NCBI RefSeq assembly: GCF_000003815.2
Contig: NC_049990.1
Coordinates: forward strand, 18,066,020-18,130,019
Source of the DNA: Branchiostoma floridae
Taxonomy: Eukaryota > Chordata > Leptocardii > Amphioxiformes > Branchiostomatidae
Direction: 5' to 3'
DNA: 64,000 nt
The notes below the pieces were generated by a model. That model made no database searches. It worked only from the letters and a program-made list of their open reading frames with translations, and was not told the origin of the DNA. The position numbers and the translations under genes were made by a program. Numbering within the stretch: the first letter of the stretch is position 1; every line of letters begins with the position of its first letter. This document shows positions 10,017-50,668 of the stretch, in pieces.

Positions 10017-12553
10017 GTCCAATTTTCCCTGTATTCTGTCCTAGTGATTCGTGACGTCACGGTCATAACGTCATCACCAAGCGCGCCCATTGGTTCAGAG
10101 TAAGGAGGAAAAGCCCTCCCGGTTCTATATTCGTATGGCCTTCAGCTGATGCCTGAGAAGTTTTGGCGGGGTTTGCAAAAACTGTCAACGTCACAGATCG
10201 AGATGGTTACCTGAGGTCAACACAAGTTTCCTCTAAACTTGCTTGGTACCGCAAAGCGAGAGGGGTATCTTGCCGAGAGTATTATACATGTTGGATATGG
10301 CATGGCAAGATGTTATTGATTTACACAAAATCTGCCTATGGCCATTTTTATTCGCATTTCTACCTATTTTTGTGCCCCGTCGTTTCAGACTAAGCTACAC
10401 ACACCTCCCTGTGACAAGTCACGCGCGAGTTATCTTTCTGTTAATGCATGACTCAATTGCAATGTTGTTTAAGTGTGCTGATCTGTAAGTAGCTCTCCTG
10501 TCCACGTATACTAAACTACTTCCTCCAAGCCCTTCGGTCCTGATTTGCAAAATCTCTTCACGTCACAGTTGACATGGTTACCTGGGTCAGATTTGACCGT
10601 CTAACTGAGTGGGCATTATGGATACAGAGAGACATACATGTACATCTGGTACATTTTGACATGTATTTCAACCTGTTTCTTCCCATTGTTTTCGACTGCT
10701 GTGCCTCTCTGTATCCGTGACAAGTCACGCACTAGTTATATTCTGTCAATGCATGAAGGACTGTTCAAGTATACCACTGTAACTAAACTTATATTATTAG
10801 TTCGGATCGGTCACACATGTGATCAACTACAGAGGCGCTTGGAGGAAACACATTATAGACCACATGTGACAAGTCAAGTCAAGTTTATTGCACAACGATT
10901 GCATCAGGTACCGTGTATGGCAAATAACATGTATTACTAACAGCTACAAACTAACAACATTAGTATACCAATCTAACATCATTAGTTAATAAAGAATATG
11001 GTGGTACAGTGTATTTCACATTGTGGCAGAGCCCCTCGGGCATTACGGATAACTTGTGCGTGAAGGATAACTTGTGCGTGACTTGTCACTGCGTACAGAC
11101 ACAGACTGGTGTGTCTAGCTCAGTCTGAAACTGACGGAATAAAAAATACAGGTAGGAATATAAGTAAAATGGTCAGGTTCCAAGCGTGTTAACCTGGCAT
11201 ATCTATATCTTACAATACCCACAATGCTGTCGGTAAGGTACCAGTCTTGCTTTGGTCAGAGTCAAACTGTCAGGAGGAAGCTTGTGTTGAAAAATCTCCA
11301 GGTAACCATGCCAACTGTGATGCAAAGAGTTTACGCAAAAGGAAACACGAAGGGCTTGGAGCTTGAGGAAACACGTAGTTGACCGTACGTGACCACAAAA
11401 GCTAGGTACAGAGTGGTACACTTTAACAGCCATTCATGCATTAACAGAAGGATAACTTGCGCGTGACTTGTCACGTACAGACACAGGCTGGTGTGTCTAG
11501 CTCAGTATGAAACTGGCGGGATAAAAAATACAGGTAGGAATATAAGTGAAATGGGCAGTTTTCAAGTTTGTAAACCTGACATATCTATATCTTACAATAT
11601 CCACAATGTCCTCGGTAAGGTACCAGTCTTGCTTTGGTCAGAGCCAAACTGTTTGGACGAACCTTCTGTTGAAAAATCTCCAGGTAACCATGACAACTGT
11701 GACGCAGAGAGTTTTGCAAATTGCACAAGGAAACGCGAAAAGCTTGGAGGAAACACGTAGTCGACCACACGTGACAATAAGAGCTAGTTACAGAGTGGTA
11801 CACTTTAATAGCCATTCATACATTAACATAAGGATAACTTGTGCGTGACTTGTTACAGACATAGGGAGGTAGGTGTGTCCAACTCAATGGGGTAAAAAAT
11901 CAGATCAACTAAAAATGGGCAGATTTCGTGTGAATCTTGCCACTATATCTTGCCATACCATGTCCATAAAGTGGAATGCCCTCGGTAAGCTACCCTTCTC
12001 GCTTGTGTTGACCAACTGTGAGGTGAACTTTGCAGAAGACCAGGCGCTTGGAGGAAGCTTGGACGCATTTGACCGCACGTGACCCCAAGAGCTAGTTGCT
12101 GAGCGGTACATTTGAACAGCCCCTGGGGCATTACCAGAAGGATAACCTGTGCGTGACTTGTCACAGACACAGGCTGGTGTGTCTAGCTCCGTCTGAAACG
12201 GCGGGGTAAAAAACAACAGATAGGAATACGAGCAAAAATTCGCAGATTTTGTGTAAATCTGACATTATCTTGCCGTATCCACAATGCTCTCGGCAAGATA
12301 CCCTTCCAACCCTGCCAGAACCAAGCGGTTTGGAGGAAACTTGAGTTGACCTCAGGCAACCATCTAGATCTGTGACGTTAACAGTTTTTGCAAACCCCAC
12401 CAAAACTCCTCAGGCATCAGCTGAAGGAAACACGATAATAGAAGCAAGCAGATTTTTTTCCTTCTTACTCTGAACCAATGGGCGCGCTTGGTGATGACAT
12501 AAGAACGTGACGTCACAGATGATTGGGACAAAATACTGGGAATATTGGGCAGT
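10017..12553. mobile_element. 2.5 kb foldback element built from repeated modules
   Basis: The outer ends are inverted repeats. The left has GTGACGTCAC then CAAGCGCGCCCATTGGTTCA; the right has TGAACCAATGGGCGCGCTTG then GTGACGTCAC. Inside, a module marked by CTTGTGCGTGACTTGTCAC occurs in direct orientation at about 11071, 11456, 11838 and 12146 (spacing 385, 382 and 308). It occurs in inverted orientation at about 10411 and 10717. Six modules are therefore arranged head-to-head, two against four. All open frames in it are repeat shadows. The left end lies about 260 bases upstream of the lectin gene ATG. Confidence 0.85.
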
Positions 12554-15868: not shown

Positions 15869-18800
15869 ATGGCTGACACAAACACCAAGAAAGTCGTCTA
15901 CGGAATCGTTGGCAATATTCCTGCACATTTTCACTCTGCGGATCTCAGAAACTACTTCTCCCAGTTCATAGAGAGCGGCGGCTTCGACTGTTTTCACTTC
16001 AGACATCGTCCGGAGGCGAGAGACGGAGATACAGCGGGGGAAAACAATGATGAAGAAAGTGTTTCGCAAGAAGGGAAGGGGGAGGGGGGCAAGTTCGTAG
16101 GTTCGGGAACAAATGTTTCGAAAGTAAGTGGAATTACGGACATTTTACCGTCTACGTCTACATCTGAACAGAAAGTCTTGACAGACTATAGAGCAACTGT
16201 GGATAGCGAGACTTCAAGAGATCCAAGCAGAAGTAAGACGAACAGAAGAAAAACTTTGTGCTGTGTTGTACGCGTTGTGGAACAGAGGTGGGACGAACTA
16301 GTGAAGATGTACCACGGGAAACACTGGGTGGACAGGCGGGGGGACTACCTCCGGCACCGGGCTACCGTCAGGAGGGTCAGGCTGGCAGAGGAAGGTGCGA
16401 TAGACAGAAATCACACTGCTATATGATTTGATATCATATGTTGCTTTGATTGTGATGATTTCATTTTATAAGCGCTTTCACAGAGGTCAGCATGCATGTG
16501 CAGCGAAAGGAATTCTAGGTACCGGTAATATGTCAAAGGCAAAGGCCTCAAAAAAAGAAAACAGTCCTTGTCTCGACCATTGTTGCGATTTGCATAACAA
16601 CGTCCAGACAGGTTCTGTTTTCATTTTGTGGGCCTTTACCTTTGACATATTATCTAGAATTCCTGTCGCCGCACATGTGTTCTGATTTCTGTGAAAGGGC
16701 TCATTGCTGATCAGATATTGCAGATTTTATAACATTTTATTGTCAACACTTACACTACAGGTTTTTCTTTCATAATTTTTGTTTGTAATTTTTTTCAATC
16801 AAATAAATGTTCTTGTTCTGGAATAGCACGTTTGGGAGTAATTTTCTTCTGAAAAAATCTTTAAAGTGACACAAAATGCATTGTCCCAATCTTTTCCAGC
16901 TTGTATCTATCACTTCAGCCAAAATCTTTTTATTTTAATTAAATGATAGAATCCCTACTGAGTAATGACCAATTTTTTTCAGGAGCGTAACCAGAAACAC
17001 AACATATTTTTTTCTAGGCCTTACAAACAATGTCCAATGTTTCAGGTTCTGATGCATTGAAGTACCAGACAAGAAAGGAAGTTGAGCAAAGACGGAAGAG
17101 GAAAGATGGAGAAACCATCAGCCAATCAGAGCTGCAGAAGCTCATCGAGCTCCACCCGCCCAACGTCATGCCTCGCGGGAACGTGGGAACGCCAATCAAA
17201 GTGTTTCTAGAACTGATCCGCACATGCAGGCTCCCCCCTATTCTCATCCACAAACTTGGACTGGTCTTCCCTTCCACTGGGTCTAGCAGGAGGTATGGGA
17301 ACGTACCATTTGACTATGGGGGGAGTGTGAGGGAGGGAAGCATGGTGCTGACTGCTACAGGGGAGGAGCTGTCTGCCGAGGTGGGGTTTGTGGAACAGCA
17401 ACAAAGAAGGAGGGAAGAAGAGAAGGAGGAAAGGAGGGAACAGGAGAGACAGCAGAAGGAGGAGGAAGATAAAGCAGATGAGTCTCACTCTGATGATGTA
17501 AGTTTTAATAAGTGTGTACTGTATTTAAGGAGTACATATACTTAACTCCAGAAGTGGGCCTTCCATTAGATGTCTTGATTCTGCTTGTTACAGGAAGTGT
17601 TTCTACCGGTAGATGCGAGTCAAATCTGTGTCTTCTTGTAACTTCACAGAAATGTTACTCAGAAACGCAAATTGCAAAATACATGGAGATGTCAGTGAAA
17701 TACATGTACCTATCTTGTGCCTAATAGCATTAGCATGGTTACGAAATTGGAAAACTAGTGATGTGCAGTACATATCACTGCATAGTTATAAAATGAATGC
17801 TGCGTGCAGTGTGTTAAACTCTCAAGTTATCCCCTTCCAACAGGACGATGACAGGTGTGAGGAATGGGAGCGCCACGAGGCCCTGTACGACGACGTGACC
17901 AAACAGGGGCGGAACAAGGAGCGACTGTTTGAGGAGGAGATCGAGCTGAAGTGGGAGAAGGGCGGGAGCGGGCTGGTGTTCTACACAGACGCGCAGTACT
18001 GGGACCAGCTCAGGGGGGACTTTGATGAGAGGACTACTGATGACTGGGATGTAGACATGAGTGTGTACTATGATCCAGGTAAGGTATAGAGGACTACTGA
18101 TGACTGGGATGTAGACATGAGTGTGTACTATGATCCAGGTAAGGTATAGAGAACTACTGATGACTGGGATGTAGACATGAGTGTGTACTATGATCCAGGT
18201 AAGGTATAGAGGACTACTGATGACTGGGATGTAGACATGAGTGTGTACTATGATCCAGGTAAGGTATAGAGGACTACTGATGACTGGGATGTAGACATGA
18301 GTGTGTACTATGATCCAGGTAAGGTATAGAGGACTACTGATGACTGGGATGTAGACATGAGTGTGTACTATGATCCAGGTAAGGTATAGAGAACTACCGA
18401 TGACTGGGATGTAGACATTAGTGTGTACTATGATCCAGGTAAGGTATAGAGAACTACTGATGACTGGGATGTAGACATGAGTGTGTACTATGATCCAGGT
18501 AAGGTATAGAGGACTACTGATGACTGGGATGTAGACATTAGTGTGTACTATGATCCAGGTAAGGTATAGACAACTACTGATGACTGGGATGTAGACATGA
18601 GTGTGTACTATGATCCAGGTATGGTCATCGTATTTGCCTTTCTTACCATCTTTGTTTATTACCAGTAGTACATGAAAAATGTTTTTTGTTCTATCTGTAT
18701 GTTTGTCTGCTTGGCAGTACTTGCCTATGTTTCCAGATATTTGTGGTCAGCATAACTTAAGAACCTTCATATGGATATGTGATGATATTTGGTTTGTAGG

Positions 18801-20820
18801 TCTGTGTTGAGAAGTGGAGGTTGAGGACAATGCATTATAGGCCTCCTGGCAGCTGACCTTGGTACTGCAGCAAAACTTTCCCAGTTTGGTATCTTTTGTT
18901 CTGGGCATGCTATTGTCTTGTTTTATAGCAACTTTTTTGTAACCAGCATTGGTCAGTTAATGAACAGGATAACTCACAAAATCATTTAAAAGGTTTTTGA
19001 TTTTTGTTTGAAGGAAGAATTTAATTTTTAGCCCCCTACCAACGTCTTTCAAAGTGCAGCTTCCTATCTAACTACAGATTAGTATACGTTGATTATAATT
19101 ATGTTGCCTTTGCAGGCATTTGCCTTGTCCAAGGGTTGGGAATTTTCATAGTAATTGTTAGACTTCTTAATCTAATGTGAAAATGACTGATAAAAGATCT
19201 CTTGTATTGTTCTTACAGATGGAGGAGACAAGGATGCCCGTGACTATCTCCAGATGCGTCTTGAGCAGCGGCTACGGGCGGGTCTAGATGGGGAAGACGT
19301 CACCACAACGAAGAAAGACAAACGGAGGCAGCGGAAGGAACAGAAGGATCAAGAAGGAAAGATTGGACAGTTTGAGAAGCATACAAAGGTTCATGTCTTG
19401 TTTATGGTATCAATAATGTGACATAAAGTAAGGAAACAATAAATGTACAGTTTTTGATAAGTGTAAGTTGTACTTTCATGTAGAATAAATCTAGAATACA
19501 ACGTGATCTGACTCAAGAATTCACTGCGTAGTGATTTATTTTCATGTCCTGCCCTTCTGAGAAAACAGAAAATTCAAGGCAAAATATGCCGAAAGTTTAG
19601 CATGGGCAAACAAAAATGACAACAATAGCAATTTCAACGTCCCAATCTAGTATTTAAATTTACCATGTGATAACCCAATTGTTGCCCTATATGGATTACC
19701 CATTTAGAACATAATCACAGCTTGGGTTGGGACATAATAGGGGATATCAGACAAGTCCCAAATCTCAGCCAGTTAGTTTTGGATGGTTGTTTCATAAAGG
19801 TATTTTCATAGATCATTTATGTGTATGTTTCCATCCCCAGGGTCTCGGGCGTAAGATAATGGAGAGGCAGGGCTGGCGAGACGGGGAGGGGCTGGGGTCC
19901 TGGAAGAAGGGGCCGGCGGACGCTCTGGGGAACGAAGGACAGGGACCCTGGGACAAGAGGGGCTTCGGGTGAGTAGAGAGATCCTTAATGTCAGATGTAG
20001 TAACATAATTACTACTTAAGTCTTCATGCATTGACCTCTTCTTGCATTCAATGACGTACATGTATACATATGTACAGGGCTTGAAATACCCTGTGCAGGT
20101 AAAATTTGAGCTGTGCAGGTGTTTTTAATGTATACCTGTACCTAAACTGCACAGGTCAATATACTGGGTTTTTATTATACATGACTGTACTATGATGTAG
20201 GTGTATGTGAATTTTAACTAGCTTCATTAACTGGTATACCACCTATGAAGTATAAAAGAAATAATAGCAATGGTTTCTGAAAAGTTTTTAGTATGATCTA
20301 TGCTTCCTAACTTTTGAGTGGACTGGTGCAGGTAAAATTTTTGTCTGGTGCAGGTAGTGTCCAACGTTACCTGCACCAGTGCAGGTATGCAGAAAAAAGT
20401 ATTTCGAGCCCAGTAGGTTGTATCTTCATTGAGTCCGAGGGGTAGTCTGACAAGATACAGTAGCTGATATCTTGCGTACCTTTACCGTTAAGTTGATAAA
20501 TCAAGAAGTACACTACTGTCACTCAGTATCAGTACATAGTGTTTTGTGGTAGTTTTGTCATTCTTGAGTGGGTACATGTACTAGTACACTAAACTGTGTT
20601 GTTGTTTTCTTTCTGCAGTTTCTATGGCGAGAAGCTTGACCGCCAGGCTGGAGGGAACAAACGCCGGCGCGTAGAGAAGGACGTTGTGATCTCTACCGTG
20701 TACGACGAGCCGCACCAACTGGATAACGCAGAAACGCTGACGAGACAGGCTGGGCCACATACGCTCAAGTACAGGACTAGTGTTCCCTTTGTCAGGGGCA
20801 CACAGGAGGACAAGACATGA
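15869..20820 (+). CDS. GPATCH3: G-patch domain-containing protein 3
   Basis: Six exons: 15869-16394, 17046-17497, 17844-18078, 19219-19388, 19841-19968, 20619-20820. They sum to 1713 bases (570 residues; human about 525). The N terminus VYGIVGNIPAHFHSADLRNYF is the RRM-like start of GPATCH3. The block RGNVGTPIKVFLELIRTCRL in exon 2 and the acidic EEWERHEALYDDV block in exon 3 follow. The G-patch itself is exon 5, about residues 462-505, reading GLGRKIMERQGWRDGEGLGS. The C-terminal exon carries basic RQAGGNKRRRVEK. G-patch proteins usually bind and activate DEAH helicases; GPATCH3 is nuclear and is linked to RIG-I/MAVS signalling and CXCR4 regulation in vertebrates. Exon 2 ends in a Glu/Arg-rich coiled coil (EEEKEERREQERQQKEEEDK). 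The last 50 bases of exon 3 and its splice donor are tandemly amplified in the following intron. Confidence 0.9.
16471..16701. mobile_element. Foldback element in GPATCH3 intron 1
   Basis: Arms of about 75 bp: GCGCTTTCACAGAGGTCAG through AATATGTCAAAGGCAAAGGCC, and GGCCTTTACCTTTGACATAT through CTGTGAAAGGGC. It accounts for the open frame after exon 1. Confidence 0.75.
18029..18627 (+). repeat. 60-bp tandem array spanning an exon end and its splice donor
   Basis: Ten near-identical copies of a 60-bp unit begin inside GPATCH3 exon 3 and run into the intron. Each unit holds 50 bases of coding sequence (encoding about TTDDWDVDMSVYYDP) followed by AG|GTAAGGTATAG. The donor dinucleotides fall 60 bases apart from 18079 to 18619. 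Copies differ at only a few positions (GGACTACTGA, GAACTACTGA, GAACTACCGA or CAACTACTGA; GACATGA or GACATTA), and the last copy has GTATGG in place of GTAAGG. The unit is 20 codons, but each intronic part contains an in-frame TAG (GGT AAG GTA TAG). Only use of the first donor therefore gives the full protein. Confidence 0.97.
20077..20411. mobile_element. TIR element, GGGCTCGAAAT family, copy 1
   Basis: The ends are GGGCTTGAAATA and TATTTCGAGCCC. The inside repeats GTGCAGGTAAAATTT on both sides. It lies in GPATCH3 intron 5. Confidence 0.75.
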
Positions 20821-34969: not shown

Positions 34970-37900
34970 CTAGTGGACAGGAGTGGGGCTGTCACCTGCA
35001 TCCTCCCTGCGGCCCCTCTGTCTGCGCAGCTGCACCTGTAACAACAAAAACACAGATGATGAAACTATAGAGAAGGCTCTGCCCTAGAGGCATTACCAAA
35101 CTATACAGTTTACCATAGAAAAATCATACAACTGTAACAATTGCAACTAACATGAATATGACATTCTGTGAAGCTACATGATATGTACTGGCCAAAACTG
35201 TGTTGATTTTTTACGCTCACACAGTATGGTAATATGTATACTTCAGTCTAATAGACCGTGTTTGACTGTGTCTTGCAAATTTTTAACTTTCCTTCAACAG
35301 ATTGTTTAAGACATAACACCAAATTTTCCTCTAAAAGGCTGAAGGGGTCAAGGTAAATACCATAAATGTCATCTGGCCTCTAGATATACAACAAATTTGC
35401 TTCGCCCTAATGGTGCTTAGAGCTATATGGTCAAAGCCAAGGCCCAGCCAGGATGTTTTGTGTATTTTGTTGTCTTTTTATTTATTCATTTATTTATTGA
35501 TCTTTATGGTAGTCCCTTCAGTTAACGTAGTAACTGATTTCCAAGGGAGCCCTATAACAATAATAATAACTCAGAGTACAAAAAATAACTACTAACATAG
35601 GATTGAACATAACAAAGCAATAATCCAATTCGGATTTGTAAATCATACAAGCAACTTAGGAAAACTCAAAAGAATAACAACTCATACTTAATAACAAAAA
35701 CAACTCAAGATCACAAACTCATAAGGTCATTGGGTCTTTTATATTATATTCACCTATTTCACACTTCCCAGAATCCTTTGCTTCAGGGATTCAGTTCCAG
35801 AACCTCAAAGAAAGGGATTCTGCAAATTCTAGAAAGCTACCCGACAGGGCCTCAGTTTGGAAATGTGACGGAAGCATTTGATGAGAAGAAAACACCCCAC
35901 CTGCAGCTGCAGCTTGTTAGTGAAGAACATACTCTTCCAGCCCACATCTTTAGCCAGGTCTCGCATCTCCTCTGTCACGTTCTCACAGTGGCGCTCGTAC
36001 ACGTGCTCCCACAGCTCGTCCGAGTTACAGATCTGGGATATAGTAAAAGTCAAAGATGTAAGGATAATGGTGTATTCATCAACATTGTGTTATACTTGAT
36101 CAACTAGTTAAAGCAAATTTTGGACGAGGGCGCTGATTGGTCCCTACACATGAGCAAATCAAGCAATGGGTTCTTCAAGCGTTCATTCAAACAGGCATTC
36201 CAACACCAGAAACGGCCCTCCGTCCACTTGCGGGAGGGCCTGCTGTCATCGAACGAGCGCTCTAGAACCCATTCCTTAATTCCCTCTTTAACTGACGTTA
36301 CCACCAAATGTATTTTCTTGTTAGATCAGTTCAGTCCTACCTCTCTGAACAGCTTGTTGGTCTGTGGCTGATTTGATTGACACATGTCTCACCTCTCTGA
36401 ACAGCTTGTTGGTCTGTGCCTGATTTGATTGACACATGTCTCACCTCTCTGAACAGCTTGTTGGTCTGTGCCTGATTTGATTGACACATGTCTTACCTCT
36501 CTGAACAGCTTGTTGGTCTGTGCCAGCTGAGAGATGTCCTCCAGCTCCAGGTACGACACCAGGAAGATCAGCATGGGCTTCGGCACACGTGTGATGAAAT
36601 CAACGTGCCCGCGGCACAACCCCAGGGCATGTTCCAGCGTAGGCTCTCCGAACACCCTCCGCACATCCCCTACAAACAACAACATCAACAGTCATTCATG
36701 TGGTTCCAAACAAGGGCTGGCTCCAGCTTCAAGTTTTTGTCTATCTAATCATCTATTTAGTGAATTTTCAGAAGCATTTCTTTCTAATTTGTTGTTGAAT
36801 CTATCATTTTACTACTAGTAGGCTCATGTCAATATATCATGTTATATCATGTATCAGACTAAGTATTTTTCCAAGCAAGCCTAGCCTGAGTACCAGACTG
36901 CTGTGCTATTATGTATAATAGTGACTGTCGCTAATCATTTCGGCCCGGGAAACATCTAATGCTTCGCCACCAAACACAGCACGCGGGCCCTCTGATCTTA
37001 GACTGGGTGACAATTAGCTGTTGGTGCCAATAGAGGTCAGGCACCAGCTCTATATGGGCTTGTGACCTTTTGGGGTGAAAGGGCTATAGTTTAGTGCAAA
37101 AGGGCTATAGTTTATAGCAAGGGTCTACTATCCAGGCTAAAGCAAGCCATGTTCCAACAGAGGGTCTTTTATATGATAGTATATTGCTAAACCACAGAGA
37201 ATCTCCTTGTACTTTCAAGTGAGTTACAAAGGGTGTGTGGCCTGTTTCCCTATTATACGTCGCTACCCTCCGAAATACAATGGCGTTTTCCCTAGAAACC
37301 GCAAGGTGGCAGTTCTTCACAGTAAGAGCAAACACAACATCCGGGCACTGACCCTCCCATCATCCTCTTTCCCGAAACTGCCCTTCTTCGAAGTGGTTTG
37401 TGGTATCGTTTTGTCTCTCGCTTCGGTGGTATTTTCCTACCTTAGCGGGACATTTTCTGTCCTTTTTAGTTCACAGTAGGTTCTTGAGACTTCATAGTCT
37501 CTTTAGGTCGCTTTTGTGACTTTGGAACTGTTGTTTTGCATCACTATTCACCTTTTGCTGTTTTCTTTCACAGCGTTTCTTTTCAGGCTCACGTGCTAGA
37601 CGGACATGTTCGAACATGCCCTGTTCTTCGTGTCTAGCGGTGATGATCAAAGTGATGATCCCAACCACGTCTACGGACCATGGTTGGAATCTGTACCCTC
37701 CTGTATCTTTGTGCAGGCAGGGAGGCGTGACCCCTCCCACTGGCTGGGTTGTCACGCCTGAGTCTTACGCAATCCTCTGTCCTTCGTGGCAGCAGGTTTT
37801 CTGCGAGCAGTACCAGTGCTTGTCCGCCGCCACTTTGTTGCCGGCAGGCCTTCTTGAAGCACCCCCGCTGTTTTCCTATTACAGCGGGGCCAGGTACTGG

Positions 37901-50568: not shown

Positions 50569-50668
50569 NNNNNNNNNNNNNNNNNNNNNNNNNNNNNNNN
50601 NNNNNNNNNNNNNNNNNNNNNNNNNNNNNNNNNNNNNNNNNNNNNNNNNNNNNNNNNNNNNNNNNNNN
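50569..50668. other. Assembly gap (100 N)
   Basis: A run of exactly 100 N; the true length is unknown. It lies in the region expected to contain the TRIP12 start exon. Confidence 1.

What the first reader, a model, noticed from the sequence alone, without database searches (positions are those of the whole stretch)
18029..18627. Ten-fold tandem array of a splice donor at the end of GPATCH3 exon 3
Seen directly: a 60-bp unit holding the last 50 bases of exon 3, the GT donor and ten intron bases is repeated ten times with very few changes. All ten copies carry a good donor (nine GTAAGG, the last GTATGG). Each intronic part has an in-frame TAG, so only the outermost donor makes the full protein; any later donor gives a premature stop. 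The copy homogeneity suggests recent expansion or ongoing homogenisation. Inference: such an array could tune productive splicing by donor competition, with downstream use sending transcripts to decay, and copy number could vary between individuals.
Basis: partly seen in the sequence, partly recalled or inferred. Interest (0 to 1): 0.75.

Follow-up and report, generated by a model that had tools for sequence, protein, structure and literature searches.

The report
Lancelet splice-donor minisatellite in GPATCH3
A lancelet gene carries ten back-to-back copies of the end of one exon and the start of the next intron; this is one more example of a repeat type already described in lancelets, most likely harmless, although repeats built around splice donors seem to be common in this genome.

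Summary
The array is real: ten 60-bp copies at 18029-18627, nine with CAG|GTAAGG and the last with CAG|GTATGG, at the 3' end of exon 3 of a 570-aa GPATCH3-like gene. Only the first donor gives the full protein; donors 2-10 meet a stop at codon 408. The genome (513 Mb) is a lancelet, very probably Branchiostoma floridae: a globin gene carries a 158-bp acceptor array fitting the published BflGb6 'mirage'. Mirages are tandem repeats of exon-intron boundaries, known from lancelet Adh3, globin and TnC genes and reported not to disturb normal splicing (passages). So this is a new member of a known kind; the regulatory idea has no support. Added here: a second donor array in this window (F-box gene, 36339-36524); a third (NDK exon) in 200 kb of spaced samples; and a genome-wide excess of triplet CAGGTAAG arrays, 1620 matches against 17 for the reversed word, about 61-fold after normalising, partly from dispersed families. 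A small test on 264 kb showed no clear excess. Because each unit holds AG|GT, re-splicing could restore the normal mRNA; untested, and the acceptor signal is weak.

The parts
18029..18627 (+). tandem array, 60-bp unit x 10 (50 exonic + 10 intronic bases incl. GT); donors at 18079, 18139, 18199, 18259, 18319, 18379, 18439, 18499, 18559, 18619
18569..18627 (+). copy 10, the border copy: 6 of the 12 differences, donor CAG|GTATGG, runs on into the single-copy intron flank
   Evidence: U1 duplex energy -8.0 against -11.5 kcal/mol for copies 1-9
17844..18078 (+). exon 3 of the GPATCH3-like gene, ending in copy 1; of the ten donors only 18079 keeps the frame free of a stop
   Evidence: gene model and donor-by-donor translation
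18079..19218 (+). intron 3 (1140 bp) when the first donor is used; holds the other nine donors
15869..20820 (+). GPATCH3-like gene, exons 15869-16394, 17046-17497, 17844-18078, 19219-19388, 19841-19968, 20619-20820; 570 aa
   Evidence: Pfam G-patch PF01585 E 2e-5 at residues 460-488
36339..36524 (-). second donor array of the same kind: 52-bp unit x 3.6, four donors (36496 GAG|GTAAGA, 36444 and 36392 GAG|GTGAGA, 36340 GAG|GTAGGA) at the end of an F-box exon
   Evidence: Pfam F-box-like E 1e-9

Best explanation
The array is a 'mirage': a lancelet minisatellite whose unit happens to span an exon-intron boundary. Shown: a 60-bp boundary segment is present in ten tandem copies, the inner copies are nearly uniform, the border copy is divergent, and only the first donor gives the full reading frame. 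Inferred: the array grows, shrinks and is homogenised by unequal exchange or conversion; the first donor (18079) is the one used; copies 2-10 leave as silent intron DNA; rare use of a later donor gives an mRNA with a stop at codon 408 that is discarded. The array is tolerated rather than selected for a function. It belongs to a class of donor-bearing arrays found at many places in this genome.
For: Anatomy and uniformity. Lancelet genome: 513,431,437 bp; globin locus L014, one of nine places found, carries four acceptor copies in a 158-bp array at the 5' end of a globin exon, fitting the description of BflGb6 (150-160 bp, 3' end of intron B12.2 plus start of exon 2; passages). Published: mirages seem not to interfere with regular splicing (passages). 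The unit is specific to this locus: 5 matches at E <= 0.001, all inside the array (that search scores only its best candidates). Same structure at other exons: F-box, NDK (L027, 42 bp x 51.6, found in 1 of 20 spaced 10-kb samples), dynein D4, TMEM237, ephrin-receptor-like and, below Pfam's cut-off, SPATA7/HSD3. Genome-wide: three CAGGTAAG 38-68 bp apart 1620 times, reversed word 17; single words 27,256 and 17,430.
Against: No RNA was examined, so use of the first donor is inferred. Copies 2-9 have donors as good as copy 1 by U1 pairing, so what directs splicing to copy 1 is not explained by sequence. PMC3087553 allows that repeated sites could be used as cryptic sites. A small test on 264 kb did not show donor motifs clearly enriched in array units (7 seen, 4.7 expected). 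The species name rests on the globin locus and on my recollection of the assembly size.
Confidence: 0.82

Rival explanations
1. Donor-competition switch: the array sets the level of productive splicing; later donors send transcripts to decay, and copy number tunes expression.
For: Ten intact donors; each of donors 2-10 gives a stop at codon 408; nine of the ten are equally strong.
Against: Published mirages seem not to disturb splicing (passages). Such arrays sit in unrelated genes. In the 42-bp NDK array GT is intact in 49 of 50 copies and AG in 47 of 50, while many other columns never vary, so no sign of selection on the inner donors. No conservation data were available.
Confidence: 0.06
2. 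Dual-specific sites: each unit end CCAG|GTAAGG can act as donor and as acceptor. If splicing starts from a later donor, re-splicing from donor 1 to a later CCAG removes whole units and gives the same final mRNA, so the array heals itself. It works like the tandem AG|GT arrays of human UBC.
For: Ten of ten units keep CAG|GT; F-box 4 of 4 donors and globin 4 of 4 acceptors are AG|GT, the NDK array mostly so. AG|GT arrays are spliced by whole units in human UBC, and introns spliced in this way are 8.4-fold enriched in human tandem repeats (PMC10809524: abstract, passages, sections 7 and 9). A CTGAT branch-point-like motif lies 38 nt before the CCAG of copy 2. CAGGTAAG gives more array matches (1620) than AAGGTAAG (276), whose AAG is, from general knowledge, a poorer acceptor.
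Against: The pyrimidine content before CCAG is 0.47 in three of the four copies measured (0.53 in copy 9), at the 32nd percentile of all YAG in the window and below all five real acceptors of the gene (0.53-0.82). The CTGAT motif is lost in copy 7 (change at unit position 10). TAGGTAAG, with a good acceptor end, gives only 231 matches. Adjacent units are only 60 nt apart. No RNA seen.
Confidence: 0.12
3. Assembly artefact: a stuttered single-copy boundary.
For: Five of ten copies are identical. PMC3087553 notes that one mirage was aberrantly assembled in the genome draft.
Against: Shared internal variants (unit position 4 A in copies 3, 7, 8, 10; position 31 T in copies 7, 9) are not what stutter would give; the same kind of array recurs at other exons; for the similar PGBD5 repeats re-sequencing argued strongly against assembly error (passage of PMC3902484).
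Confidence: 0.04
4. Intron-gain intermediate or introner-like mobile unit spreading donors.
For: Tandem duplication of AGGT segments is an accepted route to new introns (PMC3443670 passages). Dispersed donor-rich 51-bp and 68-bp families exist in this genome (listings).
Against: The GPATCH3 unit was found only at its own locus and the gene already has an intron here; no new intron results if donor 1 is used.
Confidence: 0.05

Closest known systems
Amphioxus 'mirage' minisatellites (Adh3, BflGb6, BflGb9, TnC; PGBD5 likened to them)
   Different: new gene (GPATCH3-like); donor side; 60-bp unit x 10, where BflGb6/9 units are 150-160 bp and Adh3 units 10-72 bp (PMC3087553 passages)
Tandem arrays of dual-specific AG|GT splice sites (human UBC, VCX3A)
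   Same: AG|GT in each head-to-tail unit; unit length a multiple of three (228 nt in UBC, 60 here)
   Different: in UBC the units are coding and dual use is shown by RNA; here the units carry an in-frame stop and dual use is not shown
Intron gain by tandem duplication of an AGGT segment
   Same: duplicated AG|GT boundary segment
   Different: an existing intron is extended; no new intron is made

Membership tests
mirage minisatellite | tandem repeat spans an exon-intron boundary | tested here: met
mirage minisatellite | found in a cephalochordate genome | tested here: met
   indirect: the same genome holds a 158-bp x 4.2 acceptor array at a globin exon that fits published BflGb6; species name inferred, no call names it
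mirage minisatellite | inner units homogenised, border unit divergent | tested here: met
   copies 1-9 98.1% identical on average, copy 10 has 6 of 12 differences
mirage minisatellite | regular splicing undisturbed | not testable with these tools
   no RNA data; published for Adh3, globin, TnC (passages)
mirage minisatellite | length instability between alleles or cells | not testable with these tools
   one assembly; single locus found
dual-specific splice-site array | AG|GT core in every unit | tested here: met
   10 of 10 units
dual-specific splice-site array | sequence able to act as acceptor | tested here: inconclusive
   weak pyrimidine tract (0.47, 32nd percentile of YAG, below all five real acceptors of the gene); one CTGAT motif 38 nt upstream in the interval tested, lost in copy 7
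dual-specific splice-site array | junction reads as both donor and acceptor | not testable with these tools
   no RNA data
introner / mobile unit | similar copies at many loci | tested here: not met
   5 matches at E <= 0.001, all within this array (only best candidates are scored)

The most novel reading that the evidence does not exclude
In lancelets splice donors are preferred sites of minisatellite birth or survival, giving (by extrapolation from one chromosome) hundreds of donor arrays genome-wide, and these arrays are harmless because each AG|GT unit is a dual-specific site: whichever donor is used first, re-splicing by whole units converges on the same mRNA. This would link mirages, dual-specific sites and intron gain in one system.
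Probability: 0.13. Interest if true: 0.72.

Novelty: new member of a known kind. Interest (0 to 1): 0.38.

Why it matters
As a single locus it is ordinary for a lancelet. The genome-wide excess of donor-bearing arrays, if it survives a full annotation-based count, turns a phenomenon known from a handful of genes into a natural experiment: many introns in which several near-identical donors compete, all in one animal that can be studied by RNA sequencing. That would make it testable how the spliceosome picks one of many equal donors and how tandem duplication makes introns.

Tried and rejected
Rfam families in the window: 0 at gathering scores. Enrichment of strong donors in array units over 264 kb: 7 motifs seen (two of them in one zinc-finger array) against 4.7 expected, no clear excess; this small test disagrees with the genome-wide word counts, which have far more data but rest on few donor words and partly reflect dispersed families. 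Avoidance of T at +6: suggested by 0 of 9 CAGGTAAG clusters on C1, but only 24% of all CAGGTAAG are followed by T (6660 of 27,256), so p = 0.08, and the single-word listings show clusters with T (e.g. C1:222125-222431); dropped. Adh3 as a second published mirage: the one locus fetched of the 23 ADH_N places (L035) looks like a sorbitol dehydrogenase (recalled), with one 47-bp x 2.1 repeat that does not reach an exon I recognise; Adh3 itself not found. A role for acceptor quality: CAG 1620, TAG 231, AAG 276 matches do not rank by it. Assembly size of B. floridae in print: a search (listing) and one paper (passages) gave no size.

Limits of the counts: match counts are inflated by long arrays and overlapping triplets. 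Clusters and their sorting into 'locus-specific' and 'dispersed family' were done by eye from listings that show only about the first 100 matches, in contig order. On C1 (35.3 Mb, which these listings run past) I count 16 clusters for CAGGTAAG (9 taken as locus-specific, 7 as dispersed families), 4 AAGGTAAG, 5 TAGGTAAG, 5 AGGTAAGT, 1 CAGGAAAG. Control words vary: reversed words gave 17, 36, 68, 53 and 93 matches; CAGGAAAG gave 157, and 48 of its roughly 100 listed rows are one C7 array whose unit itself holds a donor. AAGGTAAG is only 4.8-fold over its reversed word after normalising (276/25,509 against 53/23,715). Genome-wide single counts of CAGGAAAG, TAGGTAAG and AGGTAAGT were not obtained. 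Planned and not obtained: CAGGTGAG triplets and a genome search with the F-box unit. In one search other arrays gave candidate donor or acceptor lines; I judged them by eye and did not test them against Pfam.

Full report
Observation. The window holds a clean 60-bp tandem array at 18029-18627. Copies 1, 2, 4, 5 and 6 are identical; the ten copies show 12 differences from the consensus, six of them in copy 10, which runs into the unique intron flank. Ten donors lie at 18079 + 60k: nine CAG|GTAAGG and one CAG|GTATGG. Predicted U1 pairing is -11.5 kcal/mol for copies 1-9 and -8.0 for copy 10; of the 7990 GT sites on both strands of the window only 0.2% and 1.8% pair at least as well.

Gene. A six-exon model gives 570 aa with a G-patch domain (E 2e-5). 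With donor 1 the frame stays open; with each of donors 2-10 it ends at codon 408.

Which genome. The window is C12:18066020-18130019 of an assembly of 513,431,437 bp in 431 contigs. A globin search gave nine places; in one of them, L014, a 158-bp x 4.2 array repeats the acceptor and the start of a globin exon, with four acceptor copies before GTTACTCCG, three ending in CAG and one in TAG, and a globin domain after the last. [quoted passage not shown] I take the genome to be that species; the assembly size agrees with my recollection, and no call gave a species name.

Known kind. PMC3087553 and PMC3902484 (passages) call such repeats 'mirages', name Adh3, globin and TnC examples, and liken PGBD5 repeats to them. 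They say that regular splicing seems not to be disturbed; the first adds that repeated sites could act as cryptic sites. The original Adh3 paper is not held; what I say of it comes from those passages.

Not an isolated case. The same window has a second donor array, 52 bp x 3.6 at 36339-36524 on the minus strand, at the end of an F-box exon. I took 20 segments of 10 kb spaced along C12 plus the window: 264 kb with 49 arrays of period 20 or more. Of these 49, I recognise three that begin at the donor of a coding exon whose gene or exon has Pfam support: the two in the window and, in L027, a 42-bp x 51.6 array after an NDK exon (E 9e-14). The window was picked by a reader, so only the one in 200 kb is an unbiased find; other candidate lines were judged by eye only. 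In the NDK array GT is intact in 49 and AG in 47 of 50 aligned units, while many other columns never vary: no sign that inner donors are protected.

Genome-wide. Three copies of CAGGTAAG with 30-60 bases between them occur 1620 times; the same word reversed 17 times. Single words number 27,256 and 17,430, so the excess is about 61-fold after normalising. The word with GT changed, CAGGAAAG, gives 157 matches (reversed 36), 48 of the roughly 100 listed rows being one array that itself carries a donor; AAGGTAAG 276 (reversed 53; 4.8-fold after normalising), TAGGTAAG 231 (reversed 93), AGGTAAGT 161 (reversed 68). So the excess is strong for one donor word and modest for the others. Counting clusters on C1 by eye I find 16 for CAGGTAAG against 1 for CAGGAAAG, but 7 of the 16 look like dispersed donor-rich families. 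Flanks were fetched for 15 of the 19 clusters that I see among the listed matches. Translations from seven of the 15 went to Pfam; four matched: dynein D4 (9e-11), TMEM237 (7e-27), ephrin-receptor-like (1.3e-6) and SPATA7/HSD3 (1.1e-5, below Pfam's cut-off); three did not (L037, L038, L045). The other eight were not sent: L046-L050 showed no long open frame before the donors or no array, L041 no donor in the range searched, and L039 and L043 no frame that I trusted. The small test (7 against 4.7) did not show a clear excess, so I hold the genome-wide bias as likely but not settled.

How it works. Best reading: a blind minisatellite process amplified a boundary segment; the first donor is used and the rest is intron. 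This use is inferred; by U1 pairing copies 2-9 are no weaker than copy 1. Why tolerated: one attractive answer is that each unit carries AG|GT and can serve as acceptor as well as donor. PMC10809524 (abstract, passages, sections 7 and 9) shows this for human UBC and finds such introns 8.4-fold enriched in human tandem repeats. Here re-splicing by whole units would give exactly the normal mRNA. Against it, the stretch before CCAG is poor in pyrimidines (0.47, 32nd percentile of YAG, below all five real acceptors of the gene), the branch-point-like CTGAT is lost in copy 7, and word counts do not rank by acceptor quality.

In print. A search for 'dual-specific splice' with 'amphioxus' found no paper. 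Searches for a survey of lancelet boundary minisatellites listed the two papers above and others that I judged unrelated from the listing and did not open; two searches showed only 20 of 479 and 10 of 79 papers. The library holds open-licence papers only.

Verdict. The regulatory interpretation lacks support. The abundance of donor arrays in this genome is the part worth following.

Noticed in passing
window 36339-36524, minus strand: Second splice-donor array, 52 bp x 3.6, at the end of an F-box exon; four donors. Donors 2 and 3 shift the frame, donor 4 keeps it but passes a stop.
   Followed up: yes
L027 5710-7873 (C12:13000001-13010000): 42 bp x 51.6 donor array after an NDK exon; each unit also has a T-rich stretch and most end in CAG, so a unit looks like a complete mini-intron.
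   Followed up: partly
L046-L050 and listings: Apparently dispersed minisatellite families (51 bp and 68 bp units) rich in donor- and acceptor-like words at several places without a long open frame.
   Followed up: no
L014 954-1601 (C18): Acceptor array, 158 bp x 4.2, at a globin exon; apparently the published BflGb6 mirage, here with four acceptor copies.
   Followed up: yes
window 17814-18746, minus strand: A 310-aa reading frame runs open through the whole array on the other strand; probably a by-product of a period divisible by three.
   Followed up: no
window 11062-11853: 382 bp x 2.1 tandem repeat, not at an exon that I could recognise.
   Followed up: no
window 50569-50668: Run of 100 N, likely an assembly gap or a withheld stretch.
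   Followed up: no
L031 3358-4991: 132 bp x 12.4 repeat inside a 1.7-kb open frame, looks like a coding repeat.
   Followed up: no
G000:C7:25808355-25811753: Very long array (about 50-bp unit) whose unit carries CAGAAG|GTAAGAC; looks like another donor array.
   Followed up: no
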